Part shown: positions 1-52,376 of the stretch, one piece after another
How the letters are laid out: every line of letters starts with the position of its first letter
Numbering within the stretch: position 1 is the stretch's first letter
Source of the DNA: Bremia lactucae
Lineage: Eukaryota > Oomycota > Peronosporomycetes > Peronosporales > Peronosporaceae
Reading direction: 5' to 3'
Length of the DNA stretch: 64,000 nt
Assembly: GCF_004359215.1 (NCBI RefSeq)
Contig: NC_090611.1
Coordinates: forward strand, 796,627-860,626
Translations under genes and position numbers: made by a program
Notes under the pieces: generated by a model
Told to the model about the DNA's origin: nothing
Databases searched by the model: none
What the model saw: only the letters and a program-made list of their open reading frames with translations

Positions 1-735
1 GCAAGTACATTCGTGCTTGCGAGGTATGTCAACGGGTGAAGTCTAGCTCTTCGTCCCGCGCACCTCTTCAACCTCTACAACTTCCGGCAAAATGTTGGGC
101 AGTCCGTATATATGGACTTCGTGTTCGAATTTCCCGAAAACGATCACAGAAACAATGACATCCTCGTTTTTGTAGACAGATTCAGCAAGATGGTACATCT
201 TGTTGCAGTATAGAGATCCACGGCTCACGGCGAAGTTTCGTCAATCCGTGTTACGATCTCTCGGAACACGGCTGACTATGTCAACTTCTAACTACCAGAG
301 ATAGATGTCAGACGTAACGCGTAAATCGCGTCCTCGAAGGGATACTTCGAGGTTACGTCAAATCGTATCCGAATTGAAGCGAGTTTCTACCCATTGTCGA
401 ATTTGCCATCAATAATTCGGTGCGTGCGTCTACAACGCATGCACCGATCTTCATGAATGGCTTACGCCATTCAGTCATACCCAGCCAATAAAAGGACTCC
501 TCTAGTTTAAGGAAGGGGTGAACTCGCACGAGCAAAACGATCTCTGGCTCATGCTAATCACGCGTCGAAGTTACCAACGACGCGAATGATGTCGATGTCG
601 AAGCAATGGACATCGAAGATGAGAAAGATCTCATGGCAGTGCGCACAAAGCGCACAGAAAAAGATAAAACAAACGAGTCAGCAGAGGAATTTCTTCTGGC
701 TAGAGAATCAGTAATCCGTTTCGTATAGGATTTCA
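1..735 (+). pseudogene. Gypsy copy A1: decayed integrase core
   Basis: This is the 3' part of a Ty3/gypsy integrase, read on the plus strand, and a close match to the better copy at 22579-23166. The zinc-finger end is visible at the start (ACEVCQRVK, so both Cys are kept) and a catalytic-core strand with DRFSKMVHLVAV lies near 176-211. Directly after that, about 90 bases that are present in the other copy (roughly 22909-22995) are missing, so the core is deleted and out of frame. The second core block and the DDE glutamate region follow in fragments up to about 360. The rest (360-735) matches the interval between integrase core and C-terminal domain at 23160-23530. It cannot make a working integrase. 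Confidence 0.85.
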
Positions 736-746
736 TTGCTAACGCA

Positions 747-1673
747 GTGGACCGTCAGAAACGGAACGCAGACAAACATGGAAGAACAAACGTTCTTTCA
801 TTTCAAATTAGTGACCACGTACTACTCTCTACGGTAAACTTACCGAAACATGTAGTCACTAATGCGGGTTGTAGTACACCTCATCTCAAATTCATTGGGC
901 CATTCCGTGTACTGCATCGCAGAGGCAATGCGTACACAATAGAATTGCCACGTAGGATGCGAACGCATCCTACGTTTTACGTTGGTCGGCTCCGCCCGTA
1001 CCATCAGTACGCGGTTTCTTCCGAGGACGGATCTGACCACCCTTTACAAGAAGTCCTAAAAGATTCTTGTGGTCACGAACCAGATTCTCATGCTGAATCT
1101 GGAGATTCCCATGTCGGGTCCGAAGATCCTCGAAACCGCGATGAGCTGACGACAGCTCATTACGAAGAGCGTGAAAATTCCGATCGTACTCCAACGTGGA
1201 GTACGCACGCTTCGAACGGTCTCCCAACCGTTCGATATGATGAGACTGCACCGTCTGCTCTAACGAGCGACGCTTACCGCGCTCGTGATCAAGTCCTTCC
1301 TCCAAATCATGGAGGAAGCGATCAAGTTTGTCGATCTTCGACTCTAGATCCGACACATGGCTCGGATCTAATTTCCCCTCCTCCGTCACAACCATTGGTG
1401 GATTTCCACGGTGATCAACGTTTCCTTGTGGAACGTATCCGACACCACCGTGATGTGAAGGGGCAGCGAACGAGTTATTTTGTTCGCTGGCGCGGTTATC
1501 CACCATCACATGACAGCTGGGAGCCTCGTTCCCAGCTGATTGTTGACGTTGAGGGCCTCGTCCGTCAGTATGACGAGACCCATCCGATGGATCAGAAGGT
1601 CCATCGGAAAACACGCGCCCCTGGCGCCTGTAAATTGACTGCAAAACGTCAATGGCATCGCGCATCTCGATAG
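747..1673 (+). pseudogene. Gypsy copy A1: integrase C-terminus plus chromodomain
   Basis: This open stretch of about 308 codons encodes the end of a chromovirus pol polyprotein. Residues 1-90 are the integrase C-terminal (GPY/F-type) region with FIGPFRVLHRRGNAYTIELP and THPTFYVGRLRPY. A hydrophilic linker occupies about 95-225. A chromodomain follows, with RFLVERIRHHRDVKGQR, YFVRWRGYPPSHDSWEP and an acidic tail. In chromoviruses this domain guides insertion to particular chromatin. The frame is intact here although the upstream core is broken. The linker is overlapped on the opposite strand by the coiled-coil end of an antisense frame. It has no start of its own because it is part of a polyprotein. 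Confidence 0.9.
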
Positions 1674-2073
1674 AGGTGCGAGCCCTTTCCACGGGCGAAG
1701 AACGGGAATAAACATCCCCTTTCACTCGTTTCGTGTTGTCAACACAAAACGGATAGGGATCGCCCCCCGTAAGGCATGGAAGTCCTGCCTCACGTGACAA
1801 CCGATGCAATTTATCCCCTGCACCGGTTGGAGTTCGTTTCTCAAACTTAACGCGAATCGAGTTAAGTCTTTGAAGCCAGGCTTCGCGTCCAATGTCTTTG
1901 ACATTGCGAATGAACGCGCTCCAGGCTTGAATAAGCGAGACTTTATCTCGCTTGTTGTTGCCACTATACCATAGATGTTTAAGAAAAGCACCAAGATAAA
2001 AATCTTCTTCAGCGCGAAAGTTCTTCGCGCTGGATTCAGGCCATGTAGCTTCGTCGCAAATAATAAGGGATAC
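970..2073 (-). CDS. Antisense accessory ORF of gypsy A1 (main body)
   Basis: This minus-strand frame stays open for 367 codons, from just below a TAA at 2074-2076 to the stop at 970. It lies antisense to the end of pol and continues far beyond the pol stop (1673). The first half is globular-looking, with AWSAFIRNVKDIGREAWLQR and DKLHRLSREAGLPCLTGGDP. The second half, roughly 1050-1400, is a heptad coiled coil (DLESKIDKLDRFLHDLEEGL, then HENLVRDHKNLLGLLV), ending in a basic RPRKKPR stretch that could be a nuclear signal. Homologous antisense frames occur at 3570-5040, 15241-16626, 23882-24900 and 51655-52376. There is no Met near its upstream end, so the true start is probably in the acidic segment at 2234-2590, through a lesion or splice. 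I know no family for it. That it is real is inferred from cross-copy conservation. Confidence 0.6.
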   Translation of the reverse strand, partial: VSLIICDEATWPESSAKNFRAEEDFYLGAFLKHLWYSGNNKRDKVSLIQAWSAFIRNVKDIGREAWLQRLNSIRVKFEKRTPTGAGDKLHRLSREAGLPCLTGGDPYPFCVDNTKRVKGDVYSRSSPVERARTSIEMRDAIDVLQSIYRRQGRVFSDGPSDPSDGSRHTDGRGPQRQQSAGNEAPSCHVMVDNRASEQNNSFAAPSHHGGVGYVPQGNVDHRGNPPMVVTEEGKLDPSHVSDLESKIDKLDRFLHDLEEGLDHERGKRRSLEQTVQSHHIERLGDRSKRAYSTLEYDRNFHALRNELSSAHRGFEDLRTRHGNLQIQHENLVRDHKNLLGLLVKGGQIRPRKKPRTDGTGGADQRKT

Positions 2074-2233
2074 TTATTGTGCGGGGTAGTCTCTCCAGAC
2101 AAGCTACTAACTAGCCGTTCGGGCAAAAGCCACGGCTATTTTTTCAGGGGCAAGACGAAACATTTTAGTGTCTACGATCCCCTAAGTGGTACCCACTAAG
2201 CAGGGGTACCAAAAGAACTTTTATTACGATGGC

Positions 2234-2590
2234 TTACGCCATCGTCATGGTGACGGCACGGGACGGTGCTGGCGATGAGGAATCATCCTCATCGGTCGAA
2301 CCAAACATGCTGTAGCGAATGCTACCAGCACGTCTACTCGAATGAGCCCCCTCATTCGTAGGCTCATAGTCAGCCGCCTGACGATGATCAGGTGACTGTT
2401 CTGTTCTACCCGGCTCGGCCATTTCGTCCGACTCGCATTCGTAGTCGACCTCAAAAGAGGGGTCGCATTCACGTGGTGTTTCACCACGTGCACTTGCAAC
2501 ATTTAAAGTTGCGGGAGAAGAAGACACTACGGTAGACGGAACGTCTGCCGCAAGAGACAATAAATAATGCGTCGCCCGCGGCTGCATGAA
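2234..2590 (-). CDS. Probable N-terminal segment of A1 antisense ORF
   Basis: This minus-strand frame of about 118 codons starts at an ATG near 2587 (MQPRATHYLLSLAADVPS) and ends at a stop at 2234. It is Ser/Ala-rich, then strongly acidic (ECESDEMAEPG, STDEDDSSSPAP). It lies between the antisense body (970-2073) and the 3' LTR (2759-3205), so transcription from the LTR in antisense would read it first. A comparable Ala/Ser/Thr-rich segment lies just inside the 3' LTR in copies E (3570-3773) and B1 (15241 onward). Copy A2 has lost about 510 bases here. It closes with ATGGCGTAAGC, so either the stop or a GTAAGC splice donor could be used. The link to the body is inferred. Confidence 0.4.
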   Translation of the reverse strand, partial: FMQPRATHYLLSLAADVPSTVVSSSPATLNVASARGETPRECDPSFEVDYECESDEMAEPGRTEQSPDHRQAADYEPTNEGAHSSRRAGSIRYSMFGSTDEDDSSSPAPSRAVTMTMA

Positions 2591-2743
2591 CCGCAGCCGA
2601 AGGCGCCACACTATTCGCATACCGCATGGACTTGTTAACCATGCGATAGAATTAGAAATGATGAATCTGACCAATTAACATCGTTTTTAATAAAGTGGTC
2701 TTTTAGTGACCACTCTACCCAATGACAGTTAGAGTGATTGTCA

Positions 2744-2758: not shown

Positions 2759-3205
2759 TGTAACGGGGTGTATAGTTACATCAAATTAACACTTAAAGGT
2801 TGTTAATTAATATATTTATCTAAAAGTTAGATAATATTTGGAGAATATTACTTTACATGGTGTAATATTCTAAAAGCTTATCCATCGGTAGATAAAGACC
2901 ATTATATCTACTTTCTCCGCGGTCCAGTCAGCGCTGGACGCGCGCAAAGAGAAAGATAGATAATACTTTTAGTACATGTATTGTATGTTTATTCATAATT
3001 AAGTTAGTATAAATGTAGATAGACAAGAAGAACTTAATTATATTAAAACAGTTTTCATTTAACCCTCTTTAAAGCAAGTGTTTTAAAGAGAAGACTTCCT
3101 CTGCACGTACTAGTGTACGTGAAGTGACGTGAGGCACCACTCGCACTGAGGCAGTGCGAAGTGGACTTGTACTGCTTCAGTACAAGTCGGCAGTGCCCCG
3201 TTACA
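2759..3205 (+). repeat. 3' LTR of gypsy A1
   Basis: This 447 bp LTR starts TGTAACGGGG and ends CCCCGTTACA, a perfect 10 bp terminal inverted repeat. It follows a polypurine tract and is related along its length to the LTR at 25078-25455. The last 110 bases contain two stem-loops: TCGCACTG/CAGTGCGA at 3141-3159, and an 11 bp stem with a 3 nt loop at 3164-3188. A GC-rich palindromic block (GTCCAG..CTGGAC) lies near 2921-2938. No 5' LTR partner is in the window. Confidence 0.85.
3164..3188 (+). promoter_or_regulatory. LTR-terminal hairpin, copy A1
   Basis: GACTTGTACTG and CAGTACAAGTC form an 11 bp perfect stem around a CTT loop. The same stem, with different loops, is at 25414-25438 (AAG) and 26835-26859 (AAA when read in LTR sense). 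It could act in RNA 3' end formation, packaging or strand transfer. The role is not known. Confidence 0.6.
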
Positions 3206-3480
3206 GTTCTTAAGTAACGATTTTCTATCTACTGGCTAAATATTCTCATAAAAAGGTATGTATAGCGCCTACTTGCGCACCGCCCAATTGTGTCTTGAAA
3301 CGATTGGCGGAGTTTATTTAAGCTTAAAATCAACCAAATAACAGAACTATTGTCTTGTTGCCCCAATATAACCAGATTTGTTTATATTGAAAAAGTTACG
3401 GCAAAATTGTTTAATAATAATTCTTCAAATAGTAGGAAATAATACTTATGTAATGCGATATCCAGTTATATCACCTCAAC
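3206..3480 (-). repeat. Diverged LTR remnant, probably of gypsy E
   Basis: The plus strand here (for example AACGATTGGCGGAGTTTATT at about 3299) aligns with 8115-8400 and 8888-9170, which lie in gypsy-type LTRs oriented to the minus strand. The A1 LTR abuts it at 3205, so the low-coordinate end is cut off. The terminal TG is no longer recognisable. Its position next to the start of the E antisense frame fits a 3' LTR of the minus-strand element E. Confidence 0.55.
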
Positions 3481-3569: not shown

Positions 3570-5040
3570 CGCATGATAGCAAATCCCGTACGCGTAGCCT
3601 CTAACGCCGCAAAGCTGGCAGCTACACGACTAAGTGTAGTTGCTAGTGATACAAATGTTTCAGTAGATGCTCATGCATTAATTACGGGGAGAGGCCCAAA
3701 CTCAATTTCGGTTGTAGGTGACTGGCATGAGTCGACGTCATCGTCCGACTCGGTGACCACTGTTAAGGCCTAGGAATCGCCCTGGGCCGAGTCCGTCAAA
3801 CCTTAAAATTCTGACGTGACAACCAAAGTGGTAATGACGACGTTGTTTAAATCGTCAGATCCTTTTGGCATGGAGTCATCACAAGATGACTCCATCGACG
3901 GCGACCTTTACCATCATCTCTGGTGATGGTAAAGGTCATTTTGAAAAGAATGCTACTGGTGGTGCTAGCGTGCATACCAGGAACAAAGTGACTTTCGAGC
4001 GTAATGTTGGCTAAAATGCTAGCATTACTGACGGGAGAGGGAACGCAAAAAACGCTGCAGTTTGATCACGAAAAAAAACCCTGGTAATCTTCTAAGAGCA
4101 ACTTAATTCGTTGGATTGGAATGACTAACGATCGATACAAAGTTTCGCTCTTCGACTCATCCAGGCTTCAAAAGCCTGGTAAGGACGAATCTAAATTCTT
4201 AATCGATGCCTTTTCCGGCATCGATGGTACATACAACGGTTCGAGAAACGAACCTTAGTAGGTGCACGCTACAAGCTGCACCATTTGTCTACAGAGGCAG
4301 ACATACCTTGTCTCCCGAGGGGAAACTCATATCCCTGCTGCTGTAAGGGTGGAGGCCATGCCCCTAGAGGGGGCGTACTTCCTGAAAAACCCTCATTAGA
4401 GGACGTACGTCTCTTCTGAAATCCGCGAAGGGATTGAAGACATTCAATTATATTACGAGCGCGCAAGGCACTCGTTCTTTAGGTGGACCTTCTGAGGAAG
4501 AGGGCAAGTCTCATTATAACGTTGAACGAGACCCGAAACATCCACCACTATTAGGGAACGTGATTTTTAACCAAAATGCGAAGGTGAATATTCTCGCCAA
4601 CGAACGTGATACTCGTTCGGACCCCCTTCACCTCGCGGTGGTTTAAGAAGCGTTCGACTAGAAAACGCTTCTTACTGCTCGAGTCCGTCAGTGGATTTGG
4701 AGGTAGAGGGAAAATCGGGTTTGCCTCATTTATCACACCGAAGTTATCACGATGATCTAAGTCGCGTCCTCCGGCACTTGCGCGAGGAGGTTAATCATAC
4801 ACATTCCCGTTGTCGTGACTTATTGTTGCCGGTCGACAATATTTGTCGCGAACATTTGCGAAACCGTGCCTAAGTTGCGGTCGATCAAACTTACGGGCGC
4901 ATCAGTCCCTTCGAGACGAGCTAGTAATAGCTCGTGAAGAGATTTCACTCTAATGGGATGAAGCAAAACATCTGGTTCGTGAGAACCAGTATTTTTTAGA
5001 ATCATTAGTCGTTGGCGGATGTCTTGGTCCGTGCCGGTTA
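3570..5040 (+). pseudogene. Antisense accessory ORF of gypsy E (broken)
   Basis: This plus-strand coding is antisense to the chromovirus E pol and spread over several frames by small lesions. From 3' LTR inward: a Ser/Ala/Thr-rich start (MIANPVRVASNAAKLAATRL, ending 3773); an acidic patch near 3880; KLHHLSTEADIPCLPRGNSY near 4270-4330, matching KLHRLSREAGLPCLTGGDPY of copy A1; SSEIREGIEDIQLYYERAR near 4410-4470, matching SIEMRDAIDVLQSIYRRQ of A1; and a coiled-coil end (SLRDELVIAREEISL, then AKHLVRENQYFLESLVVGG, 4908-5020), matching ENLVRDHKNLLGLLVKGG. The first two matching blocks lie outside the sense pol frame. Several stops and shifts mean this copy is dead. The function is unknown. Confidence 0.6.
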
Positions 5041-7984: not shown

Positions 7985-8412
7985 ACATGAAGGTGAGGTG
8001 CCTCGATACGTCACGTACACTGACGTGCAGAGAAAGGTTTTAAGATGTCTTAGCTACTCTAAGTCAATACTAAGGCTTTAGTACAGGGATGAATAAAACT
8101 GTATTAACATATTTAGTTCCTAAGAAACAATCTTCTATCTACGACTTTAATATATTTAATGGTAATACGTATAGCGTCTCCTTGCTCACCGCCCACTTGT
8201 GTCTCGTAACGATTGGCGGGGTTTATTTAAACTTAAAATTAACCAATCAACAGAACTATTGTCTTGACTAACAAATTTAAAATATTGGAATATAGAATCA
8301 ATTTATTGAAAAATATTTTTTCATACTTCTTTATTATTTTTCTCTTATAGGAAATTGCGTAATATTTCTTTGATAAAATATATATGTTTATGTAACAGGA
8401 CACCCCGTTACA
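7985..8412 (-). repeat. Gypsy LTR, minus orientation, first copy
   Basis: Read on the minus strand it starts TGTAACGGGGTG at 8412, as the A1 LTR does. It ends in a CTCTGCACGTCAGTGTACGTGA-like block (8025-7990) that matches A1 positions 3100-3125. The final hairpin part is truncated. On its high-coordinate side AAGGAGGATAAAGATGG looks like a polypurine tract. It is therefore more likely the 3' LTR of another minus-strand element whose body was later split by the copia insertion than the 5' LTR of E. Confidence 0.6.
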
Positions 8413-8807
8413 ATCCATCTTTATCCTCCTTGTAAGAAATTAAAGTTTATTGCGTCCTATTGATGCACAATTGGTTCTTATATAATGCACAGAGTTGTTA
8501 TTTCTGATAAAATTCGTGTTGCAATATTTGACACCGATTTCATAAATTTACAACTCTCACATTGTTAACACGCTTTGCTAGCTAGTTTTGGGATATAACA
8601 ACACACTGCGTAAGAATGTCTTCGTGCAGGGAAAAACGAGAAGTATATTCGTTATTATAAAACCCTAATGCATGTAACGTATTTAAATGTAACAACCTCG
8701 CTTGCTCTTTCTCTTGTCATTCACGCCAGCAACCACCACATCAGCACGACAACGAACCGTCACTGATGTTCCACCTTCAACACTCCTCGACGAGAAGTTT
8801 CCAATAT
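8036..8807. repeat. Tandem duplication unit 1 (772 bp)
   Basis: Nearly identical to 8809-9579, with only a handful of substitutions and a one-base indel. The unit spans part of a gypsy LTR, a flank, one copia target-site copy (GCTAG at 8581-8585), a whole copia LTR (8586-8782) and 25 bases of copia interior. It ends at a single N (8808), after which the same sequence restarts. Confidence 0.95.
8586..8782 (-). repeat. Copia LTR copy inside duplication unit 1
   Basis: A 197 bp LTR, essentially the same as the 3' LTR at 9358-9554. It exists because of the 772 bp duplication and is not an independent insertion. Confidence 0.85.
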
Positions 8808-8808
8808 N

Positions 8809-9579
8809 GGTTTTAAGATGTCTTAGCTACTCTAAGTCAATACTAAGGCTTTAGTACAGGGATGAATAGAACTGTATTAACATATTTAGTTCCTAAGAAA
8901 CAATCTTCTATCTACGACTTTAATATATTTAATGGTCATACGTATAGCGTCTCCTTGCTCACCGCCCACTTGTGTCTAGTAACGATTGGCGGGGTTTATT
9001 TAAAGTTAAAATTAACCAATCAACAGAACTATGTCTTGATTAACAAATTTAAAATAGTGAAATATAGAATCAAATTATTGAAAATTATTTTTTATTACTT
9101 CTTTATTATTTTCCTCTTATAGGAAATTGCGTAATATTTCTTTGTTAAAATATATATGTTTATGTAACAGGACACCCCGTTACAATCCATCTTTATCCTC
9201 CTTGTAAGAAATTAAAGTTTATTGCGTCCTATTGATGCACAATTGGTTCTTATATAATGCACAGAGTTGTTATTTCTGATAAAATTCGTGTTGCAATATT
9301 TGACACCGATTTCATAAATTTACAACTCTCACATTGTTAACACGCTTTGCTAGCTAGTTTTGGGATATAACAACACACTGCGTAAGAATGTCTTCGTGCA
9401 GGGAAAAACGAGAAGTATATTCGTTATTATAAAACCCTAATGCATGTAACGTATTTAAATGTAACAACCTCGCTTGCTCTTTCTCTTGTCATTCACGCCA
9501 GCAACCACCACATCAGCACGACAACGAACCGTCACTGATGTTCCACCTTCAACACTCCTCGACGAGAAGTTTCCAATAT
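8809..9579. repeat. Tandem duplication unit 2 (771 bp)
   Basis: Second copy of 8036-8807. It includes the gypsy LTR part up to 9184 (CACCCCGTTACA), the flank 9185-9352, the GCTAG site and the copia LTR, and it continues into the copia interior. It is the copy that connects to the complete copia element. Confidence 0.95.
9358..9554 (-). repeat. Copia 3' LTR
   Basis: 197 bp. It aligns end to end with 13435-13633 and is flanked by the GCTAG target copy at 9353-9357. Its outer base pair has mutated from TG to TT on the plus strand. Confidence 0.88.
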
Positions 9580-9958
9580 TGGTCTTGGCCACGAGAAATT
9601 GAAACTTCGTTGTCGAAATGGTATTGGTCAGGAAATCAGCGAGCTGTAACTTGGTTTCAAAATACTCCAACTGAATTACCTTGTTCTTGACTTGATCACG
9701 GACAAAATGATAGCGTTTATCAATGTGCTTCGCGCAACCTTGATACACTTCATTTTTCGCGATAGCTATCGCACTTTGATTGTCCTCGTACACCATTCCT
9801 GGACCATCAATCTTGACCTTCATATTCAGCAATAGCAATAGTCCACAATACACCTGATGTTGAGAGATCCGATTGGCCTTGTTACTGCCCCGATAAGAGT
9901 CACTAAATGCACTCAACTGCAGTTCACGTGACTTGCTCCGATAGCAGATTCCATCCAT
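9555..9958 (-). pseudogene. Copia RNase H domain
   Basis: This is the C-terminal end of the copia polyprotein. VYEDNQSAIAIAKN and CAKHIDKRYHFVRDQV are the copia RNase H signatures, followed by LADFLTNTISTTKFQFL. The frame runs on into the LTR before stopping at 9455. Upstream, SREQLSAFSDSYRGSNKANR-like sequence covers the first catalytic Asp region (SDSYRG). Codons 1-165 are open, but the join to RT is broken near 9960-10100. Confidence 0.88.
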
Positions 9959-15063: not shown

Positions 15064-15076
15064 CCATCCCCCCTTA
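15064..15076 (-). other. Polypurine tract of gypsy B1
   Basis: The minus strand reads AAGGGGGGATGG immediately before the LTR start TGTAACGGGC. This fixes the LTR as the 3' one and the element as minus-strand. Confidence 0.7.
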
Positions 15077-15240
15077 TAGAACGAATTTACATTATAAATT
15101 CGTCAAAGAGGAGAGAGGAACTGCTAGCATCTTTACGCGCCGCTAGTTCACTCAATCACTCGACCGACCTGTATTTCCATACACGGCGCCAAAGATGCCG
15201 CCTTAAAGGGGCCACGTTGGCGGGTCGTCTGCGAAGACGC

Positions 15241-16626
15241 CCACTCAACCTCGCACTAAGTGCACGCGCCGCGTTAACTCGCCGGCCGCGTCCAATGCCT
15301 TAGTCGAAACGCCGACAGCTACTGATGCTATCGCGTTAACTAAAGGATCCATCCCACATTAACAGTGAGGATGCTGATCCGTAATTCGTTGTCGACAACA
15401 ATGAGTCGACACCGATGCCGTCACCTCATAGTAGTGATGCCGACAACGAGCTCATGAGGAAGGATGATGGCGCATTATTGCCCATCCAAACTTCTCTCTT
15501 GACTCACAACTTGGAGGCAGCAAAATTTACGAATGCTGTCACGTCGTCAGCGCTGGATACCGCAGCGACGGTTAATGACAGCGCTGCCCATAAAGGCGCA
15601 GCCGCTTCTTCGTTGGGTAAACCACAACGCCTTATGCTCAACCACTATCAATAATGGTTCTGACATAGAGGATTCTGAGCCTAAAGCTTCGCTGACGACA
15701 CGTGAACTTGCTCAGCCGGTGTTACAAGCCAGTCGTTAAGAACATGGCTATCTGACGGGTGGCATTCCAAAGATGCCCCTCCAGACCAAGAGCGTCGCTC
15801 CTATAGCGCGCTCTTCTAGCCGCTTATAAATATTATGGCGTCTTTAAATCACAAGAGGCTGAGCGAAATCGCTTGGGCGTATTTTCCCGATCCCGGTCGC
15901 GTTGCGTTCAAATGAACGCCTGACCGATACGAGGCGGAATTCTTGCGCCGTATTCATCCGCATTCCGATGCGAAAAGAGCGGTCGCAACGAATTAATTTC
16001 GCCCGCTTGCGAGTGAAAGAAATCATGGGCGGTACTGTCCCCCCTGTTTCTTCATACAACGCTACTTCTGCTAGTCCATTTGAGACTCCCGAAGAGGCCT
16101 CAGTTGGTGCCCCTTTCATAGGCAGCCACCAAGCGGGGCACATCAATACGTAGGGTATCGATCGTTTCTAAAGAGTCGAAACTCTTCGAGTAACCTTTCC
16201 ATTGGACGAGGATCTGATACCTTTGGCTCTCGGAGCGGTGGGCAAGCAACCTTCTAACAAGGAAACGTTGATTCCCACCCGCATCCATCAGTGCAGGTGG
16301 CGCCCGATAGGAGTGGCGATCTCGCCCACCTACTCGCGGCTGCGTTACCTTCGTCCGTTCAGTCGCATGCGTTAAGCGCTGCTGAACGACGTATTGCGGA
16401 TCTCGAGGGTCAAGTCTCACGACTGACCTCGGAAATCGTTGACGTCCGAGCGAAGGCTCGTCAGGGTTATGAACGCCTGAAGACTCGCTTGGACCTTTTT
16501 GAACGGATAATGCTGAGGGGTCCGCGTTACTCGCGTGATGTCCCTCGCTCTCCAAGTCCTGTTTGTGGAGGGAGGATCGGTCCGATACCTTTTGCCTTCA
16601 CCGTCCCCTCACCCGAACGACGCTAG
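15241..16626 (+). pseudogene. Antisense accessory ORF of gypsy B1 (broken)
   Basis: Plus-strand coding antisense to the minus-strand B1 element. It begins near the 3' LTR with a Ser/Ala/Thr-rich part (SPAASNALVETPTATDA at about 15270-15330, then a 79-codon frame from 15415). It ends with a coiled coil at about 16300-16520 (ERRIADLEGQVSRLTSEIVD, YERLKTRLDLFERIML) opposite the integrase-chromodomain linker. The coiled-coil frame is open from 16258 to 16626 and has the same phase relative to pol as in copies A1, E and C. The middle (15740-16200) is broken by shifts. The ending FERIMLRG resembles the end of the A1 coiled coil. Its role is unknown. Confidence 0.5.
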
Positions 16627-23170: not shown

Positions 23171-24430
23171 AGTTTACAGATGGTAAAATTCGCCATCAAC
23201 ATTTGATGCATGCGTCTGCAACGCATACACCATTCTTCGTGAATGGCTTACGCCATCCACGCTACCCACCCAATTAGAGGGATCCTCTAGTTTAGGGGGG
23301 GGTGGACTCGCACGAGCAAAACCATTTCTGGCTCATGCTCATCACGCGTCGAAGTTACCAACGACGCGAGTGATGTCGATGTCGAAGCAATCGACATTGA
23401 AGATGAGAAAGATCTCATGGCAGTGCGCACAAAGCGCACTGAAAAAGACAAAACAAGTAAGTCAGCAGAAGAATTTCTGCTGGCTCGAGAATTAGTAATC
23501 TGTTCATACAGAATTCCATTACTAACGCAGTGGACCGTCAGAAACGGAACGCAGACATTAATGGAAGAGCAAATGTTCTTTCAGTGAAATTAATGACCTA
23601 ATACTAATCCTTACGGTAACTTACCTAAGCGAGCAGTCACTATTAGGGGTAGCTCTTTACGGTAAACTTCCTAAGCGTGTGGTCACTAATGCGGGTAGCA
23701 GTATAAGACTACCCAAGTTCATTAGGCCATTCCGTGTACTGCATCGCAGAGGCAATGCGTACACAATAGAACTACCACGTAGGATGCGAACGCATCCTAT
23801 GTTTACGTTTGTCGGCTCCGCCCGTACTATCAGTACGCGGTTTCTTCCGAGGACGGATCTGACCACCGATTTAAAGAATCTTTAAGCGATTCTTGTGGTC
23901 ACGGACCAGGTTCTCATGCTGAATCTTGAGATTCTCGTGTCGGGTCCGAAGATTCTCAAAACTGCGATGCGCTGACGACAGCACATCACGAAGAGCGTGA
24001 TACTTCCGTTCGTACTCCGATATTGAGTACGCATTCTTAGAACGATTTCCAAATGTTTGATATAGTGAGCTTGCACCGTCTGCTCCAACAAGTGACGCTT
24101 ACCGCACTCGTGATCATGCCCTCCCCAAATACATGGAGGTAGCGGTCGAGCTTGTCGATCTTCGACTCTAGATCCGACACACGGTTCGGATCTAATTTTC
24201 TCCACCACCATAATTATTGGTGGATTCCCACGCTGGTCAACGTTTCCTTGTGGAACGTATTCTAAGCCACTGAGATGTGAAGGGGCAGCGAACGAGTTAT
24301 CTGGTTCGCTAGCGCGGTTATCTACCTTCGCATGACAGCTGGGAGCCTCGTTCCCAGCTGATTGTTGACGTTGAGGGCCTCGTCCGTCAGTACGACGAGA
24401 CCCACCCGATGGTTCAGAAGGTCCATCGGA
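23171..24430 (+). pseudogene. Gypsy A2: integrase C-terminus and chromodomain remnant
   Basis: This corresponds to A1 370-1673. Fragments include VDRQKRNADI (about 23530), FIRPFRVLHRRGNAYTIELP (23718-23777) and chromodomain pieces (SWEPRSQLIVDVEGLVRQYD near 24340-24400). The linker has stops in the sense frame, for example TGA in GCTGAATCTTGA near 23925. A short local duplication of the CTTACGGTAAACTT block is visible at 23610-23680. Not functional. Confidence 0.8.
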
Positions 24431-24900
24431 AAACACGCGCCCTGGCGCATGTAAATTGACTGCAAAACGTCAATGGCATCGCGCATCTCGATAGAGATGC
24501 GAGCCCTTTCCAAGGGCGAAGAACGGGAATAAACATCCCCTTTAACTCGTTTCGTGTTGTCAACACAAAACGGATAGGGATCGCCCCACGTAAGGCATGG
24601 AGGTCCTGCCTCACGAGACAACCGATGCAATTTATCTCTTGCACCGGTTGGAGTTCCTTTCTCAAACTTAACGCGAATCGCGTTAAGTCTATGAAGCCAG
24701 GCTTCGCGTCCAATGTCTTTGACATTGCGAATAAACGCCCTCCAGGCTTGCATAAGCGAGACTTTATCTCGCTTGTTGTTGCCACTATACTATTGATGCT
24801 TAAGAAAATCATCGAGATAAAAATCTTCCTCAGCGCGAAAGTTGTTCGCGCTGGGATCAAGGCCATGTAGCTTTGTCGCAATAAATAATGGATATTTATT
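23882..24900 (-). pseudogene. Antisense accessory ORF of gypsy A2 (broken)
   Basis: Minus-strand homologue of 970-2073. The frame at 24753-24322 begins with an ATG that copy A1 has lost: MQAWRAFIRNVKDIGREAWL. It then runs through DKLHRLSREAGPPCLTWGDP and SIEMRDAIDVLQSIY before shifting frame. The 24436-23882 frame continues with the low-complexity part and coiled-coil remnants. The upstream acidic segment is deleted: about 510 bases of A1 are missing at 24903. Because of this deletion the antisense frame now lies only 180 bases from the LTR. Confidence 0.55.
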
Positions 24901-25062
24901 GTGAGGAGTAACAGCCGAAGACGCCGCACTATTCGCTTACCGCATGGACTTTTTAATAATGCGATAAAACTAAAAATGATGGTTCTGACCAATTAAGATC
25001 GTTTTCAATCAAGTGGTCTTATAGTGACCACTCTATTCAATAACAATCGGAGGGATTGTCGT

Positions 25063-28279: not shown

Positions 28280-29632
28280 TTAATACTCCTCACCAATTTC
28301 TTCGTCCTCACCCTCCGCTGTCTCAGCCGACACTTCTTCATAGTCCTTTTCTAAAGCCGCCAGGTCCTCTCGAGCTTCCGAAAACTCTCCTTCTTCCATG
28401 CCTTCACCCACAAACCAGTGTACAAACGCACGTTTCGCGTACATGAGATCAAATTTGTGGTTAATGCGTGAAAACACTTCGGCAATAGCGCTCGTATTCG
28501 AGATCATACACACAGCACGCTGTACTCGAGCCAGGTCGCCACCAGGCACTACAGATGGCGGCTGGTAATTAATGCCACACTTAAAGCCTGTCGGACACCA
28601 ATCCACGAATTGAATTGTGCGCTTGGTCTTGATCGAAGCCACGGCCGCGTTCACGTCTTTTGGAACGACATCACCACGGTACATAAGGCACGTCGCCATG
28701 TATTTGCCATGACGTGGGTCACACTTGGCCATCATCGAGGCAGGTTCAAAGGCGCTATTAGTGATCTCCGCCACGGACAGTTGTTCATGATAAGCTTTTT
28801 CAGCGGAGATAACAGGAGCGTACGAGCTCAGCATGAAATGGATACGCGGATACGGCACGAGATTAGTTTGAAACTCGGTAATGTCGACATTTAGCGACCC
28901 ATCGAAACGTAGCGAAGTTGTGAGCGAGGAAATCACTTGCGCAATTAATCGATTAAGATTCGTATACGTGGGTCGCTCGAGGTCTAAAGATCGACGGCAA
29001 ATGTCATAAATGGCCTCGTTATCGAGCATGACTGCCACGTCAGTGTGCTCCAGTAAAGCGTGAGTGGAAAGGACCGAGTTGTAAGGCTCTACTATAGCTC
29101 CTGAGAGGAGCGGAGACGGATAGATGGTAAATCCGAGCTTACTCTTGCGGCCATAGTCGACGGAAAGACGCTCGAGTAGCAGCGAGCCAAAGCCAGAGCC
29201 CGTGCCGCCACCAACTGCGTTAAACACCATAAAACCTTGCAGACCCGTGCACGAATCGGCAAGTTTACGGATCCGGTCAAGCACGTGGTCTACGACTTCC
29301 TTGCCTATCGTGTAGTGGCCACGAGCGTAGTTGTTAGCGGCATCTTCTTTGCCAGAAATGATCTGTTCGGGGTGGTATAGCTGACGGTAGGTACCCGTGC
29401 GCACTTCGTCACAGACCGTGGGCTCCAAGTCGACAAACACAGCCCGCGGGACGTACTTCCCCGAGCCGATCTCGGAGAAGAAGGTCGAGAACGAGTCGTC
29501 ACTCCTGCCAGTTGAGTCGCTAGGGAACTGGCCGTCTGGCTGGATACCGTGCTCGAGGCAGTAGAGTTCCCAACACGAGTTCCCGACCTGGATGCCACCC
29601 TGGCCAAGGTGGATAGACAAGATCTCGCGCAT
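28280..29632 (-). CDS. Divergent alpha-tubulin (copy 1)
   Basis: An intact single-exon gene of 450 residues that forms the alpha/beta-tubulin dimer of microtubules. The GTP-binding loop GGGTGSG (about 142-148) and the catalytic-loop Glu in [14 protein letters not shown] are present. The C-terminus ends EEIGEEY, keeping the terminal Tyr for detyrosination cycles. Unusual points: residue 40 is Ser ([10 protein letters not shown]) where alpha-tubulins usually have the acetylated Lys40, and that loop is one residue short; the start is MREI, not MREC; and residue 12 is Gly (GQGGIQVGN), not Ala. It lies head to head with 30288-31646. This could be a flagellar or stage-specific isotype (inference). 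Confidence 0.97.
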
Positions 29633-30287
29633 GTTGAAGCGAGTTGCTAGGAGTAAAAAGTTTTAGAGGCAATGAAGGTGTGAATGGTTTGTGTGTTGTT
29701 GGACAATGCGTGCAGGAACGACTCCGCCAGTCAGACAAAACGAAGGATGTTTATAAAAATTGAGATTCTATATATTATGCAAGTATGAGACACACAATGT
29801 TGTCGGGAGCTTCGGCATTAAATTACAGGAGAGATCCGCAAACATTTATACAAAAAGTGAGACCGAGTTTGAACGAACTCAAACATCTATTACTGAATTA
29901 ATGTGAAATTCGATCGTTGTGTAATAAAGAGCCGCCAGTGCTACGATACGACAGCAGCGCGACATGTTCGTACTGGTCGCCACTTTTGTCTCCTTGAACC
30001 TTAATTCTGTATTTTTTCATAGACTTTTCGCAGCTGCAAATCTTTTACACTTGTGTTAATTACATCACCGACAAAGGTTAGTTGAATTCATTATTATAAC
30101 ACCAGCGACAGGACCTAGAATGAACGGCCTATTATTTGCCAAAAAGCGATTTTTCAAACATTCAAACGAAATGGGCGGCGTGCGGACTCCCTTTCCCCTT
30201 TTGCGCGCCATTCTCCAACTCGACTGTAGACGCCCTCACAACGTTTCCAGTTGACCGTTGACGACCAACACTCTGCTAATACTAAAG
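29633..30287. promoter_or_regulatory. Shared promoter region of the divergent tubulin pair
   Basis: 655 bp between two outward-reading tubulin start codons, so both promoters must lie here. A CCATTCT at 30208-30214, 75 bases before the plus-strand ATG, fits the oomycete initiator consensus YCAYTYY. No TATA box is clear, and no other gene is seen in the interval. Confidence 0.5.
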
Positions 30288-31646
30288 ATGCGTGAAATCT
30301 TGTCCATTCATCTCGGCCAGGGCGGTATCCAGGTCGGCAATGCTTGCTGGGAACTCTACTGCCTCGAGCACGGCATCCAGCCGGATGGCCAGATCCCGAG
30401 TGACTCGTCCGCCATGGGCGATGACTCGTTCTCGACCTTTTTCTCCGAGACTGGCTCTGGCAAACACGTGCCACGTGCCGTTTTTGTCGACCTGGAACCA
30501 AGCGTCTGCGATGAAGTACGCACGGGTACCTACCGTCAGCTGTATCACCCCGAGCAGATTATCTCTGGGAAGGAGGATGCCGCTAACAACTATGCACGTG
30601 GCCACTACACGATTGGGAAGGAGGTCGTGGACCTTGTACTCGACCGTGTCCGCAAACTCGCTGACGCGTGCACAGGATTGCAGGGCTTTATGGTATTTAA
30701 TGCCGTTGGGGGCGGTACTGGTTCGGGCTTGGGTTCGCTGCTTTTAGAACGCCTGTCGGTCGATTATGGCCGCAAGAGCAAACTCGGCTTTACTATCTAC
30801 CCATCGCCTCTCGTATCCTCGGCTGTCGTCGAACCGTACAACTCGGTCCTGTCTACTCACTCGCTGCTGGAACACACAGATATTGCCGTGATACTTGACA
30901 ATGAAGCCATTTACGATATTTGCCGTCGGTCGCTGGACATTGAGCGCCCCACGTACTCGAACTTGAATCGTCTAATTGCGCAAGTGATTTCCTCGCTCAC
31001 AACTTCGCTACGTTTCGATGGGTCGCTAAATGTCGACATTACCGAATTCCAAACCAATCTTGTGCCGTATCCGCGTATCCATTTCATGCTGAGTTCGTAC
31101 GCCCCTGTTATTTCCGCTGAAAAAGCTTATCATGAACAATTGTCCGTGGCAGAGATCACTAATAGTGCTTTTGAGCCGACTTCGATGATGGCCAAGTGTG
31201 ATCCACGTCATGGCAAATACATGGCGACATGCCTTATGTACCGTGGCGATGTCGTTCCAAAGGACGTAAACGCGGCCGTGGCAACGATCAAGACCAAGCG
31301 CACGATTCAATTCGTAGACTGGTGTCCTACCGGCTTTAAGTGTGGCATTAACTACCAGCCGCCATCGGTAGTGCCTGGTGGCGACCTGGCACGTGTGCAG
31401 CGTGCGGTGTGTATGATCTCGAACACGAGCGCGATTGCCGAAGTGTTTTCTCGCATTGACCACAAATTTGACCTCATGTACGCGAAACGTGCGTTTGTAC
31501 ACTGGTTTGTCGGTGAAGGCATGGAAGAAGGAGAGTTTTCGGAAGCTCGAGAGGACTTGGCGGCTTTAGAAAAGGACTATGAAGAAGTGTCGGCTGAGAC
31601 AGCGGAGGGTGAGGGCGAGGACGAAGAGTTTGCTGAGGAGTATTAA
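30288..31646 (+). CDS. Divergent alpha-tubulin (copy 2)
   Basis: An intact, intronless gene of 452 residues. I place the start at 30288 because [17 protein letters not shown] is the invariant tubulin start; an in-frame ATG 30 bases upstream would add ten unrelated residues. GGGTGSG and [14 protein letters not shown] are present. As in copy 1, residue 40 is Ser ([10 protein letters not shown]), the K40 loop is shortened, and residue 12 is Gly. The two proteins are almost identical from about residue 200 to 430. They differ mainly in the K40 loop and at scattered sites in the first 190 residues. The C-terminal tail is [12 protein letters not shown]. The Vti1-type SNARE gene starts 215 bp downstream on the same strand. 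Confidence 0.97.
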
Positions 31647-33997: not shown

Positions 33998-35131
33998 TTA
34001 GACCAAGCAGCCGTAGTCTGGCGAGATTTGCAAAAACACGTCGTCAAAAAACCTTTCACTGCAAAAGTCTACTTGGCTTGCGTGGACCGTATACTCGTCG
34101 TCAGCATCATTGAAGGATCGTACGTCAGCATACGTGGTCTCCGGTGGCAAAATGGCGAGATTCATGGAATAAAAGCCACTCGAAGGAAAGTCTTCGACGT
34201 AAGTTTTGTTTAAATACGTTGGTGACACTTTCATCATAAAGTCGACCGCTGTGTCGCCCAAAGGAGGCTTGAAACCATCAAATTGGCTATAGAGCTGTTG
34301 TGGAGTATTTATCATTGCACTCGACCGTAAAGCCACGAATGTGTCAATGCTTGACAAGTGCGCCGGTGGCAAATGCATGACTTCATTCCTCCGGAAGTGA
34401 TATTGGGACGATTCCGCTGGAACGACATCACTTTGAGTGATGCCACTAAACGTTGGATGTACTGCGTAGTCATAGTAGCTCACTTCGTTGTTAAATCGAG
34501 GGCTCTGCGATGCTTGCGAGTCATTACCATCCTCAGATTCGCCGTCGTCGTCGTCACTTGTCAGTAGCTGCTGGTGTTGCGGCTCAAGGCGCCCGGACGG
34601 ATCGAGCCCATACGTCTCTGGGGCTAATAGTCGATCCAATTGGCGCTTGTACGTGGCGTACTGAGATTGTTGTTTCTCACTTAACGGAGCCTGCTCCTTA
34701 CACCTTTGAAGTTCCTGTAACGACCGCTTGAGGCTGCGCACCTTGCGATATGGCCAATGGCGAATGCCAATAACTCGGCATCGCTTCTTGAATGCTGTAG
34801 CTCGCACGCCAAATTTCTCGGCTGCCACTTTCAAAGGCAAATGAAAGTGCAGGCTGAAGGCCTCAAAGTTGCAAGCCGGTGACATTGTAAGAAAGTCACT
34901 TTTTCGAGCTGCGTGAACCCGCGTGGCCTGGCCGTCACTTATGACAGGACTGAGCATGTTCACGCCTTTTAGGCTAGAGACATGGTGTGACCCCAGCGGT
35001 CTCGAAGCATCCGGTTGTTGCAACATTAGCGCACTGCTTTCGGAATGCTTGCAATGGCTTAACTTGAGCAAGAAAACGCTCGATTGAAAATGAAAAAAAC
35101 AATGACGACGAACTAAGATCGCAAAAACCAT
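33998..35131 (-). CDS. RWP-RK domain transcription factor
   Basis: A 377-residue open frame. Residues about 90-140 form an RWP-RK domain: FEAFSLHFHLPLKVAAEKFG, then TAFKKRCRVIGIRHWPYRKV, with the signature as RHWPYRK (124-130), followed by a helix (SLKRSLQELQRC). RWP-RK proteins bind DNA and are known from plants, algae, slime moulds and oomycetes. An acidic Ser-rich patch (SDDDDGESEDGNDSQ) follows at about 190-205. The remainder has no known domain. The start is uncertain: Met36 (ATG at 35026, MLQQPDASRP) would remove a hydrophobic leader that looks untypical. It stands alone in about 3 kb of non-coding DNA. Confidence 0.85.
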   Translation of the reverse strand: MVFAILVRRHCFFHFQSSVFLLKLSHCKHSESSALMLQQPDASRPLGSHHVSSLKGVNMLSPVISDGQATRVHAARKSDFLTMSPACNFEAFSLHFHLPLKVAAEKFGVRATAFKKRCRVIGIRHWPYRKVRSLKRSLQELQRCKEQAPLSEKQQSQYATYKRQLDRLLAPETYGLDPSGRLEPQHQQLLTSDDDDGESEDGNDSQASQSPRFNNEVSYYDYAVHPTFSGITQSDVVPAESSQYHFRRNEVMHLPPAHLSSIDTFVALRSSAMINTPQQLYSQFDGFKPPLGDTAVDFMMKVSPTYLNKTYVEDFPSSGFYSMNLAILPPETTYADVRSFNDADDEYTVHASQVDFCSERFFDDVFLQISPDYGCLV

Positions 35132-37452: not shown

Positions 37453-40400
37453 TTACCGCATCTGCAAGGGGTCGGTAGTCAATTGAGTCTCTAGTACCTG
37501 CAACTCGCAACTCATTCTCGAAATCGCTGCCAAGTGGTAAGGGAGTGGCGACTGCCTTTCCATGGTGATCGGATGCATTGTCAAGTATGACAGCGCCTGA
37601 AAATCGCGCAAAATCGTGTTCATCATACTTGATGATATTAATTCAATCACGGGCCCATCCTTCGAACTTTGTAAGACTAGCATAAGCGTCACTTTAAGCA
37701 CCCTCTCTTCCCGATTTTCAGCAAGCATGCTTTCATTCATGGTTGTAATTTTCCATGCATTGTTACCTTTATTGTACAAAGCGCGGCTACTATCGCGAGC
37801 AGCCGTATCATTTCGTGGCGACATGATAGCGAGTCCAAGATTATCGGAAAAATACAGCACCGTTGAAGAAGGATTGTCGCGCAGCTGTACCTCGTCATAC
37901 GATGCAGCAGTGAGCTGTACGAGCAAGATGCAGGATAAATGCGGCTCATAAGTCATCGGAATCAAATTCTCCATTCGGCTTGACCGTAATTGTTCCCATG
38001 CAGACAGCTCTTTGACATTTAAGCTCGAAACTCCCGCCAGGCCCGATAGTCGTGTAATTACAAAAACACTTTTTTCACCGAAAAGCGCATAAAAATGCAA
38101 CATTTTTTGCATCATTTCAAGCAAAGCGTTTTCTAGGCCCTTCCCGTCCTCGTCTTCCCTGACAAGGATCATATATGTCTCGAGCACTGAACCAATTGCA
38201 TCAGTACAACTGCCCGCAATCCACTTTCCATCTTTTGAGAGCAAATACCCACCATAAATATGCGGCAGCTTTGTCGATTCGCTCTGACTAAAAGACGGCG
38301 TTTCAACACGCCAGTCTGCTAAATGATATAAGCGCTCGCAAATAAAGTGCGATCGACCAACAGCATTAGCACCGCCGTCAATTGGTTTGAGGCGTATGTT
38401 CTCGCACACACGATTGTAGAGCCCAAAACAGCTCGGCATGAGTACAAATGGACTTGGGTTTACATCTACTTCATACAAGTCCTCCAAGTACACCATTTCG
38501 ATTGTCACGCTCTGTCTCCATTCGCTAGCTTCAAAAGTGCTTTCAGATCCAAATAAACCACTCGAGAATGCACCTAATACCCACATTCTATGCTTCACAT
38601 CGCTTCGGCGAAACGGAGCGACTATGAATACGACATTAGCGACAGCTGAACGAGAGAAGGCTTGTTTCTTTTTAGTCGCACCAGACGACATCACAGGGCT
38701 CAAAACCTTTCCAGCAGCGCGAAAATTAGCAAAGGGGTCCACCATGCTTTTAGCACAATTCACAAGTAAAAGCCCATTAGCAACATCCACATTCGCATAA
38801 TGATTTTTTTCCACATTACTCAAATTTATTGGGGCCAAGTCACCCATGTGACATTGCCCGTACATACTACGGAAGCATGTAAAGTAAGAGAGCGCGAGAG
38901 ATGCGAGCCACTGCGAAGGAGAGTGAGGACAAATGATTACATAGTCTACTGGTTTAGGCGCCGCCACTGGACGAAAATCGCGCAATAAATATTCCGAAAT
39001 GAGAGTAGATTCAACATGTAAGCTTGATTCCAGTGTGGATATGCATACTTTTGGTTCTTCCACCTCAACACTATCTATTAGTACATCGTCACACGTATAG
39101 GATGTCGCTTGAGTGTAATCTTCAAAACTCATCCATCGTCGATCCCGTTCCATTGTACTTTCATCACTTTCGTGCTTTTCGTTTTTTTTTAAAAGCGAGA
39201 CAAGGCATTGTAAATAAGGTTGCACACGATCCATTAAGTCATTCTTGTCCGCAGCACTTGCAGCAGAGATGTGGGAATTCGTGTGCGCAGACCATGTACT
39301 AATGCCAATTGGCTCTTGCCGCCAAGTAACCAACGCATCCGATGCTGACATCTGAATGCCCAATGAAATTTCATCATCACGGAGCTTAGTACGTTTCGAG
39401 CTATTCCACATTTTTAGCGATTCTTCCCGCCTCTGTTCTTCGAACGCATTTTGGTCAAAGTTAAGTAGAAGTCGGCGCTGTTGTTCTTTCTTCACCTGAC
39501 GACCACCTTTTAGGTGATGCCTGTGAGTGTACTCGGATTTCCAATACTTACAGCGGTTTAAATAGAGACGACGATGCAGCTGCTCGGCTATTGATTCATC
39601 GATTGAAAGCCAGCCCATCGTCGCTCGAAGTTGTAACGGGATAAACGATTCGGCATTTGGCACATACTTGACTTTTTCTGCAAAACTCGCGGTCAACCGT
39701 TTATCTAAAGCCTTAGCTTCTTCATCAACATAGTCCTGGAGAGCCTGCAATGAAGGATGTGTCTTTAGCGGTTGAACTAGAAACATCTCCTGTTGTTTAT
39801 CATGAGAGAGTGACTCAACGAGTGACACATCCACACTAGGAGACTTTGTGTCATTCGTATGTCTTGTAAAAGTTGTTTCGGATTTTACTACAGAATAGTT
39901 AGCCATCGATACAGATTGCGGAGCGTCCACCGCTATTTTCTTCATACCATTACAAGGAGCTGCCTTCTCACTTGAATTTATTCCATTGGATTGGATCGGT
40001 TTAAAGGTGAATGAATAGTTCGCTTCCTTCTTCAATGTCATTTTGTGGTCTCTTCGCCGCCGTTTATAGCTTTTTACATCAAAATCAACATGCAGCTGCA
40101 AAATGTCCTCCCGAGGAAGCGTCATCCGAACAATCGGACAAGCAGCCTTAGGCGTATTAACATGGGGATCTGGCGTCACTGGTACAATTGATTCGTCATT
40201 TCCCGTGGAATTAGTACTATCACGCTTTTGTTTGGCTTTCATGACCCGACAAGCCACCGGCCGTCGTAACAATTCGTCCGTTTCGACTTCAGTCTCTTGA
40301 GTATTATCGTCATCGTCCTCTTCGTCGGCATCGTCGTCATGTTCTTCCCTCTTCAATTCATCTTCATTCCCACTGCCGTCATTTGTATCCATCCGACGCT

Positions 40401-51345: not shown

Positions 51346-52070
51346 TGTAAGGGATGCGATGGCTGATAGCCAAGACAAACGAAAGAACAAGCAGATGCCA
51401 AAGGCAGAAGCTGTATGAATTCTTGTATGGTCGGAGAATGAATTTCACTAGACGTTAAAAATCTACCTACCAACTTGGTTTCCGCGGTCTTCAAGACCAA
51501 ATTGCGCCCGCGCTTTATTGGACCATTTACGGTCGTGGCCAAGAAGGACCGAGCTTATACGCTAAACCTTTCTAGCAAGCTGCGTACACACCCAGTGCTC
51601 TACGCTGGCTTGCTTAAGCCATATCGGGACCCTTCCCACGTGGACTAGAAGGCGCTTGCGCAGATACAGGCGGTCGTGCCGCAGATTGCTGCATCCTCAC
51701 CAGAATGTCCAGCTGGCCTTCCAAATGAGGCTGCTGACACTCCAGCGTCGAAACACGGTCCCGAACCGCCTCAAGAGCTCTCAACCCGAGCAAGGACTTC
51801 ACGAAGAAGTTGCACCTCGTGCCGTAGAGCATCAAATGCTTCCGCTGAAATTTCGGCCCCCTCCCACGCTGCTTGATGCGCGGGAAAACCTTCAGTTTCA
51901 TGTGGAGAAACTTTTAAAGCGACGTCGTCGTAAGGGTTAATACCAGTATCTGGTGAAATGGCTAGGGTACCCTTCTTCTAAAAACTCTTGGGAGTTCGAG
52001 GTACCTCTTCGGCATGATTGCCCGTACGTCGTTGACGTTTTTGAGCGCCAAGGTCAGGGTCAACTCGCGT
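51346..52070 (+). pseudogene. Gypsy C: integrase C-terminus, linker and chromodomain
   Basis: IGPFTVVAKKDRAYTLNLSS and LRTHPVLYAGLLKPYRDPSH (51518-51645) form the integrase C-terminus. A TAG at 51646 is followed by the Ala/Pro/Ser linker. The chromodomain has ARENLQFHVEKLLKRRRRKG, a TAA, then YQYLVKWLGYPSSKNSWEFE. One frame change in the linker and two stops make it non-functional. The linker is opposite the coiled-coil antisense frame. Confidence 0.85.
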
Positions 52071-52376
52071 CGAACGACGCTATCACCACTAGACGTGAGA
52101 TTAGGTGGATCTATAGCCTCAGTGCGGCTTCGATCGATGGTTGTACGGTCAACCGAAGCACTGAAATATCGGCTAGACCTTTCTTCGTTTTTGTGGCATG
52201 AATGGCGAACGTAACTGGCCTTTGGCCTTAAGCTTAGCGAAATCGAAGCGAAGCTTCCGTTTTAAACGAGCATCAGCCCTATCCGCAGACTCTCTGATAT
52301 TCCAAATATTACGAAGTCGGCAGGCTCGCTGGACCCAGCTCTCAAATGAGACTTCGTTTTCACTCCTTGTTTCGTT
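51655..52376 (-). pseudogene. Antisense accessory ORF of gypsy C (broken, cut by gap)
   Basis: Minus strand. The coiled coil is carried by two frames meeting near 51785: AEAFDALRHEVQLLREVLAR, then LRALEAVRDRVSTLECQQPH with LEGQLDILVRMQQS. Upstream, beyond the sense chromodomain, the frame at 52376-52173 has SWVQRACRLRNIWNIRESAD and RLKRKLRFDFAKLKAKGQL. This recalls AWSAFIRNVKDIGREAWLQR and RVKFEKRTP of copy A1 in position and character. The gap at 52378 removes its start. The match to lineage A is weaker than that of E to A. Confidence 0.45.

What the first reader, a model, noticed from the sequence alone, without database searches (positions are those of the whole stretch)
970..2590. Antisense accessory gene at the 3' end of gypsy chromoviruses
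A minus-strand frame of 367 codons opposes the end of pol in copy A1 and extends about 400 bases past the pol stop toward the 3' LTR. Recognisable homologues lie at the same place in E (3570-5040), B1 (15241-16626), A2 (23882-24900) and C (51655-52376), each on the strand opposite its own pol. B2 and C also carry ordinary sense gag genes, so this is extra. The layout (start by the 3' LTR, coiled-coil end, basic tail) recalls antisense leucine-zipper genes of complex retroviruses such as HBZ. That comparison is only of architecture. I know of no description in oomycete elements.
Basis: partly seen in the sequence, partly recalled or inferred. Interest (0 to 1): 0.88.

Follow-up and report, generated by a model that had tools for sequence, protein, structure and literature searches.

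The report
Antisense gene overlapping retrotransposon pol end
Jumping genes of a downy mildew carry an extra, protein-coding gene on the opposite strand that starts beside the 3' repeat and runs back over the end of the polymerase gene, with the working parts of the two proteins taking turns along the shared DNA.

Summary
The frame is real, and it is a gene. Window 973-2073(-) is the C-terminal two thirds of a ~560-aa protein (here AAS) whose start lies near 2642, 116 nt from the 3' LTR. Related proteins occur in Hyaloperonospora and three Peronospora species; one 90%-identity cluster stands for 1335 sequences. In 20 of 20 ten-kb loci chosen for long AAS matches, it overlaps the chromodomain end of pol on the opposite strand. 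Variants shared by three or more of 27 copies are purified in the AAS frame outside pol (omega ~0.38; core 0.23; upstream control 0.95). The 704-nt overlap with pol is divided: opposite the chromodomain pol is constrained and AAS is not; opposite the pol linker AAS is constrained and pol is not. Two more element families, B and C, carry antisense genes at the same place; B and C are related, but not detectably to A. Most likely it is a nuclear, coiled-coil regulator of the element; that function is inferred. Antisense extra ORFs are known in plant Gypsy elements and fungal Boty. New here: oomycete hosts, proteins of no known family, and the deep, domain-segregated overlap with pol.

The parts
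970..2642 (-). Antisense gene (AAS) of copy A1, frameshifted between about 2073 and 2261; stop codon 970-972, start codons about 2642 and 2627
   Evidence: homologue P0001 82% identical over the 367-codon part
973..2073 (-). 367-codon open frame: C-terminal two thirds of AAS (helical core, linker, coiled coil, basic tail)
   Evidence: chance test
2237..2674 (-). Frame holding the acidic, Ser-rich N-terminal part of AAS (match 2563-2261)
729..1673 (+). End of pol of A1: SH3-like module (about 876-1004) and chromodomain (about 1425-1577), stop 1671-1673; overlaps AAS over 970-1673 (704 nt)
   Evidence: Pfam PF24626 and PF00385
2743..2758 (+). Probable polypurine tract beside the 3' LTR (by eye)
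   Evidence: sequence printed
2759..3213 (+). 3' LTR of A1; inner edge from TGTAACGGG (by comparison with L019 and L020), far end estimated from their ~455-nt LTRs
4022..4810 (+). Decayed AAS of copy E, opposite its own pol (minus strand, chromodomain region 5387-4468)
15195..16626 (+). B-type antisense gene of copy B1 (broken in this copy), opposite pol on the minus strand (16975-16115); LTR edge at 15064
23802..24912 (-). AAS of copy A2 (broken), opposite pol (+)
51617..52373 (-). C-type antisense gene of copy C (residues 199-451 of P0172), opposite pol (+, matches 51382-51994)

Best explanation
It is a true accessory gene of chromodomain-bearing Gypsy elements, read from the strand opposite gag-pol. 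Shown: a protein-coding antisense frame under purifying selection before insertion; a start codon some 110-150 nt from the 3' LTR in A, B and C; an end near the far end of the SH3-like module of integrase; a tail-to-tail overlap of 704 nt with pol in A1, in which the constrained parts of the two proteins alternate. Inferred: a polymerase II promoter between 3' LTR and start codon (initiator-like motif) makes an antisense mRNA; the protein enters the nucleus, oligomerises through its coiled coil, uses its helical, mostly basic core to bind chromatin, nucleic acid or element proteins and its acidic disordered N-terminus to recruit partners, and so regulates the element's own expression, silencing state or integration. 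How sure: coding gene 0.97; domain-segregated overlap 0.85; nuclear oligomeric regulator 0.5; regulation of the element's own transcription in particular 0.35.
For: Coding: selection test on 27 copies, upstream control 0.95; with six natural copies in turn as background 0.38-0.55; stop counts; conserved proteins elsewhere, P0001 core 51-68% identical to four of them. Overlap, three or more sharers: opposite chromodomain AAS 1.02 / pol 0.26 (P 0.02); opposite pol linker AAS 0.51 (P 0.016) / pol 1.28 (P 0.46, like neutral). B family, two or more sharers: linker AAS 0.40 (P 0.044) / pol 1.34; chromodomain AAS 1.98 / pol 0.25 (P 0.048). AlphaFold of P0001: disordered 1-175, helices 177-342, disordered 348-426 (includes the stretch opposite the chromodomain), one helix 429-535 with pLDDT above 90 from about 450 to 530; C-type P0172 has the same order. 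NLS-like K[KR]x[KR] in the last 40 residues of 60 of 73 A-type proteins of 480-600 aa; highest 19-aa hydropathy among them 1.57, just under the usual 1.6. Initiator YCAYTYY (PMC3599244, passages) at -40 to -28 in 19 of 27 A copies, 0.5 expected by shuffling; near -38 in 9 of 13 B copies; 16-24 nt upstream in 5 of 10 C copies.
Against: No transcript, protein or localisation data were available. The core has no family or fold match, and its A-type model is weak (mean pLDDT 54, pTM 0.24). Initiator motifs are shared by descent, so their number proves little. At two or more sharers the AAS-only omega rises to 0.57 with 6 shared stops; at four or more sharers pol opposite the chromodomain is 0.46 and not significant (P 0.27); with other backgrounds up to two shared stops appear in AAS. 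One minus frame of the AAS-only region also scores 0.41, because its third positions coincide with those of AAS; only its many stops tell it apart. In C the test has no power in the overlap: linker AAS 1.1-1.3, pol 1.1-1.4; chromodomain pol 1.07, AAS 2.18 at two sharers; C AAS-only 0.88 at two sharers, 0.37 (P 0.04) at three. B AAS-only 0.71 and 0.48 are not significant. In P0097 the core is acidic.
Confidence: 0.6

Rival explanations
1. The antisense transcript matters, not the protein: convergent transcription makes antisense or double-stranded RNA that controls the element, and the frame is a by-product.
For: Antisense RNA control is discussed for LTR elements in PMC7264820; the gene overlaps pol by 704 nt, so an antisense RNA would pair with pol RNA.
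Against: Purifying selection at the amino-acid level, 0 stops among 160 variants shared by three or more copies against 27 among 547 singletons, and protein conservation across genera.
Confidence: 0.05
2. The frame is open only because pol constrains the opposite strand (composition or codon bias).
For: In the overlap both strands are open; the pol frame also has few stops (6.1 per 1000 codons).
Against: 58% of the A1 gene lies outside pol, with the same low stop rate (3.9) and the strongest constraint (core omega 0.23); opposite the pol linker AAS is the constrained frame.
Confidence: 0.01
3. An older element or host gene was inserted in inverse direction and rides along without function.
For: No homologue outside such elements was recognised that would show where the protein came from, so an insertion origin long ago is open.
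Against: Same position and orientation in 20 of 20 A loci and 10 of 10 C loci; selection; the gene ends near the end of the SH3 match in A and C.
Confidence: 0.02
4. A counter-defence or targeting protein: it blocks host silencing of the element, or works with integrase, instead of regulating transcription.
For: Accessory proteins of that kind are known for other transposons (recalled: VANC of Arabidopsis Hiun); coiled coil and basic parts fit equally well.
Against: Nothing here distinguishes it from the best explanation; no family match.
Confidence: 0.3

Closest known systems
Antisense additional ORFs (aORF-3R) of plant Gypsy elements: Grande gene23, RIRE2, Retand ORF4, PvRetro13
   Same: Opposite strand, near the 3' LTR, present in most copies, conserved; nuclear protein and own promoter in Grande (PMC7264820, parts 1 and 2 of 3 read; PMC11963269, passages)
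   Different: Plant ORFs are described as lying between pol and 3' LTR (2.9-6.6 kb in Retand); here 42% of the A1 gene lies inside pol. No PF04195 (TRP28) match in 8 proteins. Hosts are oomycetes.
brtn, antisense gene of Boty elements of Botrytis (Zhao et al. 2011)
   Same: Additional antisense gene in a Gypsy element of a filamentous organism; known to me here only from passages and citations in PMC7264820 and PMC8365987
   Different: brtn sequence not compared; whether it overlaps pol was not looked up
HBZ of HTLV-1 (details recalled; named in PMC11963269)
   Same: Antisense gene by the 3' LTR; acidic N-terminal part, coiled-coil C-terminal part
   Different: No bZIP match; LTR promoter not shown; no common ancestry implied
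Segregated overlapping genes of HIV-1 (Rev/Env; PMC9119678, abstract and outline)
   Same: Each stretch is mainly constrained by one of the two proteins
   Different: There two frames of one strand (recalled), here opposite strands, and domains of one protein face disordered linkers of the other

Membership tests
Antisense additional ORF (aORF-3R) of Gypsy elements | Coding frame antisense to gag-pol near the 3' LTR | tested here: met
Antisense additional ORF (aORF-3R) of Gypsy elements | Lies between pol and the 3' LTR | tested here: inconclusive
   5' part does (A1 1674-2642); 3' part overlaps pol by 704 nt
Antisense additional ORF (aORF-3R) of Gypsy elements | In most copies, conserved like other element proteins | tested here: inconclusive
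   conserved and selected; 20 of 20 A loci, but these were chosen for AAS matches; 10 of 10 C loci, chosen by DNA match to the region itself, so the share among all copies is not known
Antisense additional ORF (aORF-3R) of Gypsy elements | Transcribed from its own promoter | not testable with these tools
   only an initiator-like motif
Retand-type TRP28 antisense protein | Pfam PF04195 domain | tested here: not met
   8 proteins, no such match at E up to 0.5
HBZ / bZIP | Basic leucine zipper domain | tested here: not met
   no bZIP family among the matches up to E 0.5 for 8 proteins; a long helix is predicted, with its basic stretch after it, not before it
Chromodomain-bearing Gypsy element | RNase H, integrase, SH3-like module and chromodomain in pol | tested here: met
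   Pfam: RNase H and integrase in A2, SH3 and chromodomain in A1; RVT_1 only E 0.17 in the fragment tested
Chromovirus lineage (as against Chronos of oomycetes, PMC5348765, passages) | Position in a reverse transcriptase tree; Chronos has a second RNase H | not tested
   no tree built; no second RNase H family listed for the three A2 frames scanned
brtn of Boty | Sequence homology | not tested
   sequence not fetched

The most novel reading that the evidence does not exclude
Downy-mildew Gypsy elements of at least three families keep a regulatory gene antisense to pol whose coiled-coil domain is written on the back of the integrase-chromodomain linker: two proteins of one element evolved a shared, alternating 'zipper' of domains, and the long linker of pol exists because the opposite strand codes. 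The set may be one ancient protein superfamily (a short acidic VDY-like motif recurs in A, B and C) that acts as an HBZ-like master regulator.
Probability: 0.35. Interest if true: 0.8.

Novelty: new variant of a known kind. Interest (0 to 1): 0.64.

Why it matters
It extends antisense accessory genes of LTR retrotransposons to oomycetes, where Gypsy elements can make up more than half of an assembly (58.6% in Bremia lactucae, PMC6570648, passages), and gives a natural case of a long opposite-strand gene overlap in a eukaryotic element in which selection can be assigned to each strand, domain by domain. It also explains many 'uncharacterized' downy-mildew proteins, one of them labelled an RxLR effector candidate (P0168), as probable retrotransposon products.

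Full report
What is there. The window lies in an assembly of 115.9 Mb in 220 contigs; size, gaps and repeat load fit the description of Bremia lactucae in PMC6570648 (passages), an inference. A stop-free minus frame of 367 codons occupies 973-2073. Pfam places an SH3-like module and a chromodomain in the plus frame 729-1673, so the antisense gene, with its stop at 970-972, opposes the end of pol for 704 nt, and the frame runs 400 nt further.

It is a piece of a larger gene. A database search with the frame gave 143 proteins, 120 of them listed. The best, P0001, is 559 aa and 82% identical. One cluster stands for 1335 sequences and one for 524. A profile search gave 107 proteins, all listed, again with downy mildews as the only named sources; only the 7997 best candidates were scored, so other hosts are not excluded. 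tblastn puts the N-terminal part of P0001 at 2563-2261(-) in another frame, so A1 is frameshifted; the start codons are at about 2642 and 2627 and the 3' LTR begins at 2759.

Position in the element. Twenty 10-kb loci, from the first 23 rows of the list for P0001 (78 candidates scored of 10152), were read: in 20 of 20 a pol chromodomain-region match lies on the opposite strand and overlaps the antisense gene; a few loci hold further, rearranged pieces. LTR pairs of about 455 nt are seen in L019 and L020 (88.8% and 93.2% identical), partial ones in others; the second start codon is 149 and 135 nt from the LTR. A sense ORF with a CCHC knuckle and a protease-like stretch (both by eye) lies upstream of pol in L017.

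Selection. For 27 copies (28 loci less L012) I compared variants shared by three or more copies, mostly older than the insertions, with singletons, mostly decay. Outside pol the singletons are N 383, stop 27, S 137, the shared ones N 85, stop 0, S 75: omega ~0.38, P 2.7e-7; core 0.23, N-terminal part 0.58 (P 0.043), non-coding stretch upstream 0.95. Six natural copies in turn as background give 0.38-0.55; two or more sharers give 0.57 with 6 shared stops. Fisher tests treat shared variants as independent, which is only roughly true. Stops per 1000 codons: 3.9 in this frame, 23-106 in the other five.

The overlap is divided by domain. Opposite the chromodomain AAS shows 1.02 and pol 0.26; opposite the pol linker AAS 0.51 and pol 1.28 (small numbers, 20 and 76 shared variants). 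Third positions of one gene face second positions of the other (codon-position counts), so silent changes in one are mostly amino-acid changes in its partner. The AlphaFold model of P0001 is disordered over 348-426, which includes the stretch opposite the chromodomain (about 358-409), and is one long helix (429-535) opposite the linker. P0001 is 51-68% identical to four other proteins in the core and 29-47% in the coil; the linker reaches 36-68%, as the chromodomain on its back would lead one to expect.

Two more families. For C, ten loci were obtained, the ten best of 40 DNA matches, the window copy among them. All ten match P0172 on the strand opposite the chromodomain region; a database search with one of them (L035, 341 aa) found 15 proteins, among them P. 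matthiolae and H. arabidopsidis. For B, twelve loci were obtained, one with 508 open antisense codons. B and C are related; A is not detectably related to them, although an acidic VDY-like motif recurs in all three (B by eye). The C model has the same order of parts: disordered 1-81 but for a few residues, helical core 86-249, disordered 254-370, coil 375-431. The start is 131 nt from the LTR in B1 and about 110 nt in C. Selection in B points the same way in the overlap but is weak; in C it has no power there.

How it may work. A motif that fits the oomycete initiator YCAYTYY (PMC3599244, passages) lies about 34 nt upstream of the second A start codon in 19 of 27 copies, at about -38 in 9 of 13 B copies and 16-24 nt upstream in 5 of 10 C copies; in three C copies no start was found. 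Copies share it by descent. The protein has an acidic N-terminal part in all five proteins examined, a core with net positive charge in four of five, a coiled coil and, in 60 of 73 long A-type proteins, an NLS-like end; the highest hydropathy window, 1.57, stays just under the transmembrane level. I therefore take it for a nuclear oligomeric regulator, like Grande gene23 in place and HBZ in layout; membership in either family is not shown. Function is inferred throughout.

Verdict. Observation confirmed with corrections; interpretation supported; a new variant of a known kind. Interest 0.64: antisense extra genes are known in plants and in Boty, but this one is in oomycetes, matches no known family, recurs in three element families and shares about 700 nt with pol in alternating domains.

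Noticed in passing
P0168 and P0011 (Hyaloperonospora arabidopsidis, database): AAS relatives are annotated as 'RxLR effector candidate protein' and 'Core-binding (CB) domain-containing protein'; both look like retrotransposon products under other names.
   Followed up: no
28283-29632(-) and 30285-31643(+): Two divergent tubulin genes in an inverted repeat of 1337 nt, 86% alike.
   Followed up: no
37456-41163(-), 41585-43192(+), 43264-44886(-), 34001-35131(-): Host genes amid the elements: Mediator 13-like, weak PLD-like (below the Pfam cut-off), aminopeptidase P-like (M24), RWP-RK.
   Followed up: no
8036-9586, 48349-49629, 46509-46918: Tandem duplications of about 773, 643 and 205 nt, 96-98% identical, the second inside pol of element C.
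   Followed up: no
46916-47518(+): Retroviral aspartyl protease domain (PF08284) upstream of the pol of element C.
   Followed up: no
pol of A, B and C copies: The pol stretch between SH3 module and chromodomain is long (about 140 residues in A1); whether elements without an antisense gene have a short one was not checked.
   Followed up: no
upstream of AAS, A copies printed: A TATA-like run and an ATTGG (CCAAT) box precede the initiator-like motif in most of the eleven copies printed (by eye).
   Followed up: no
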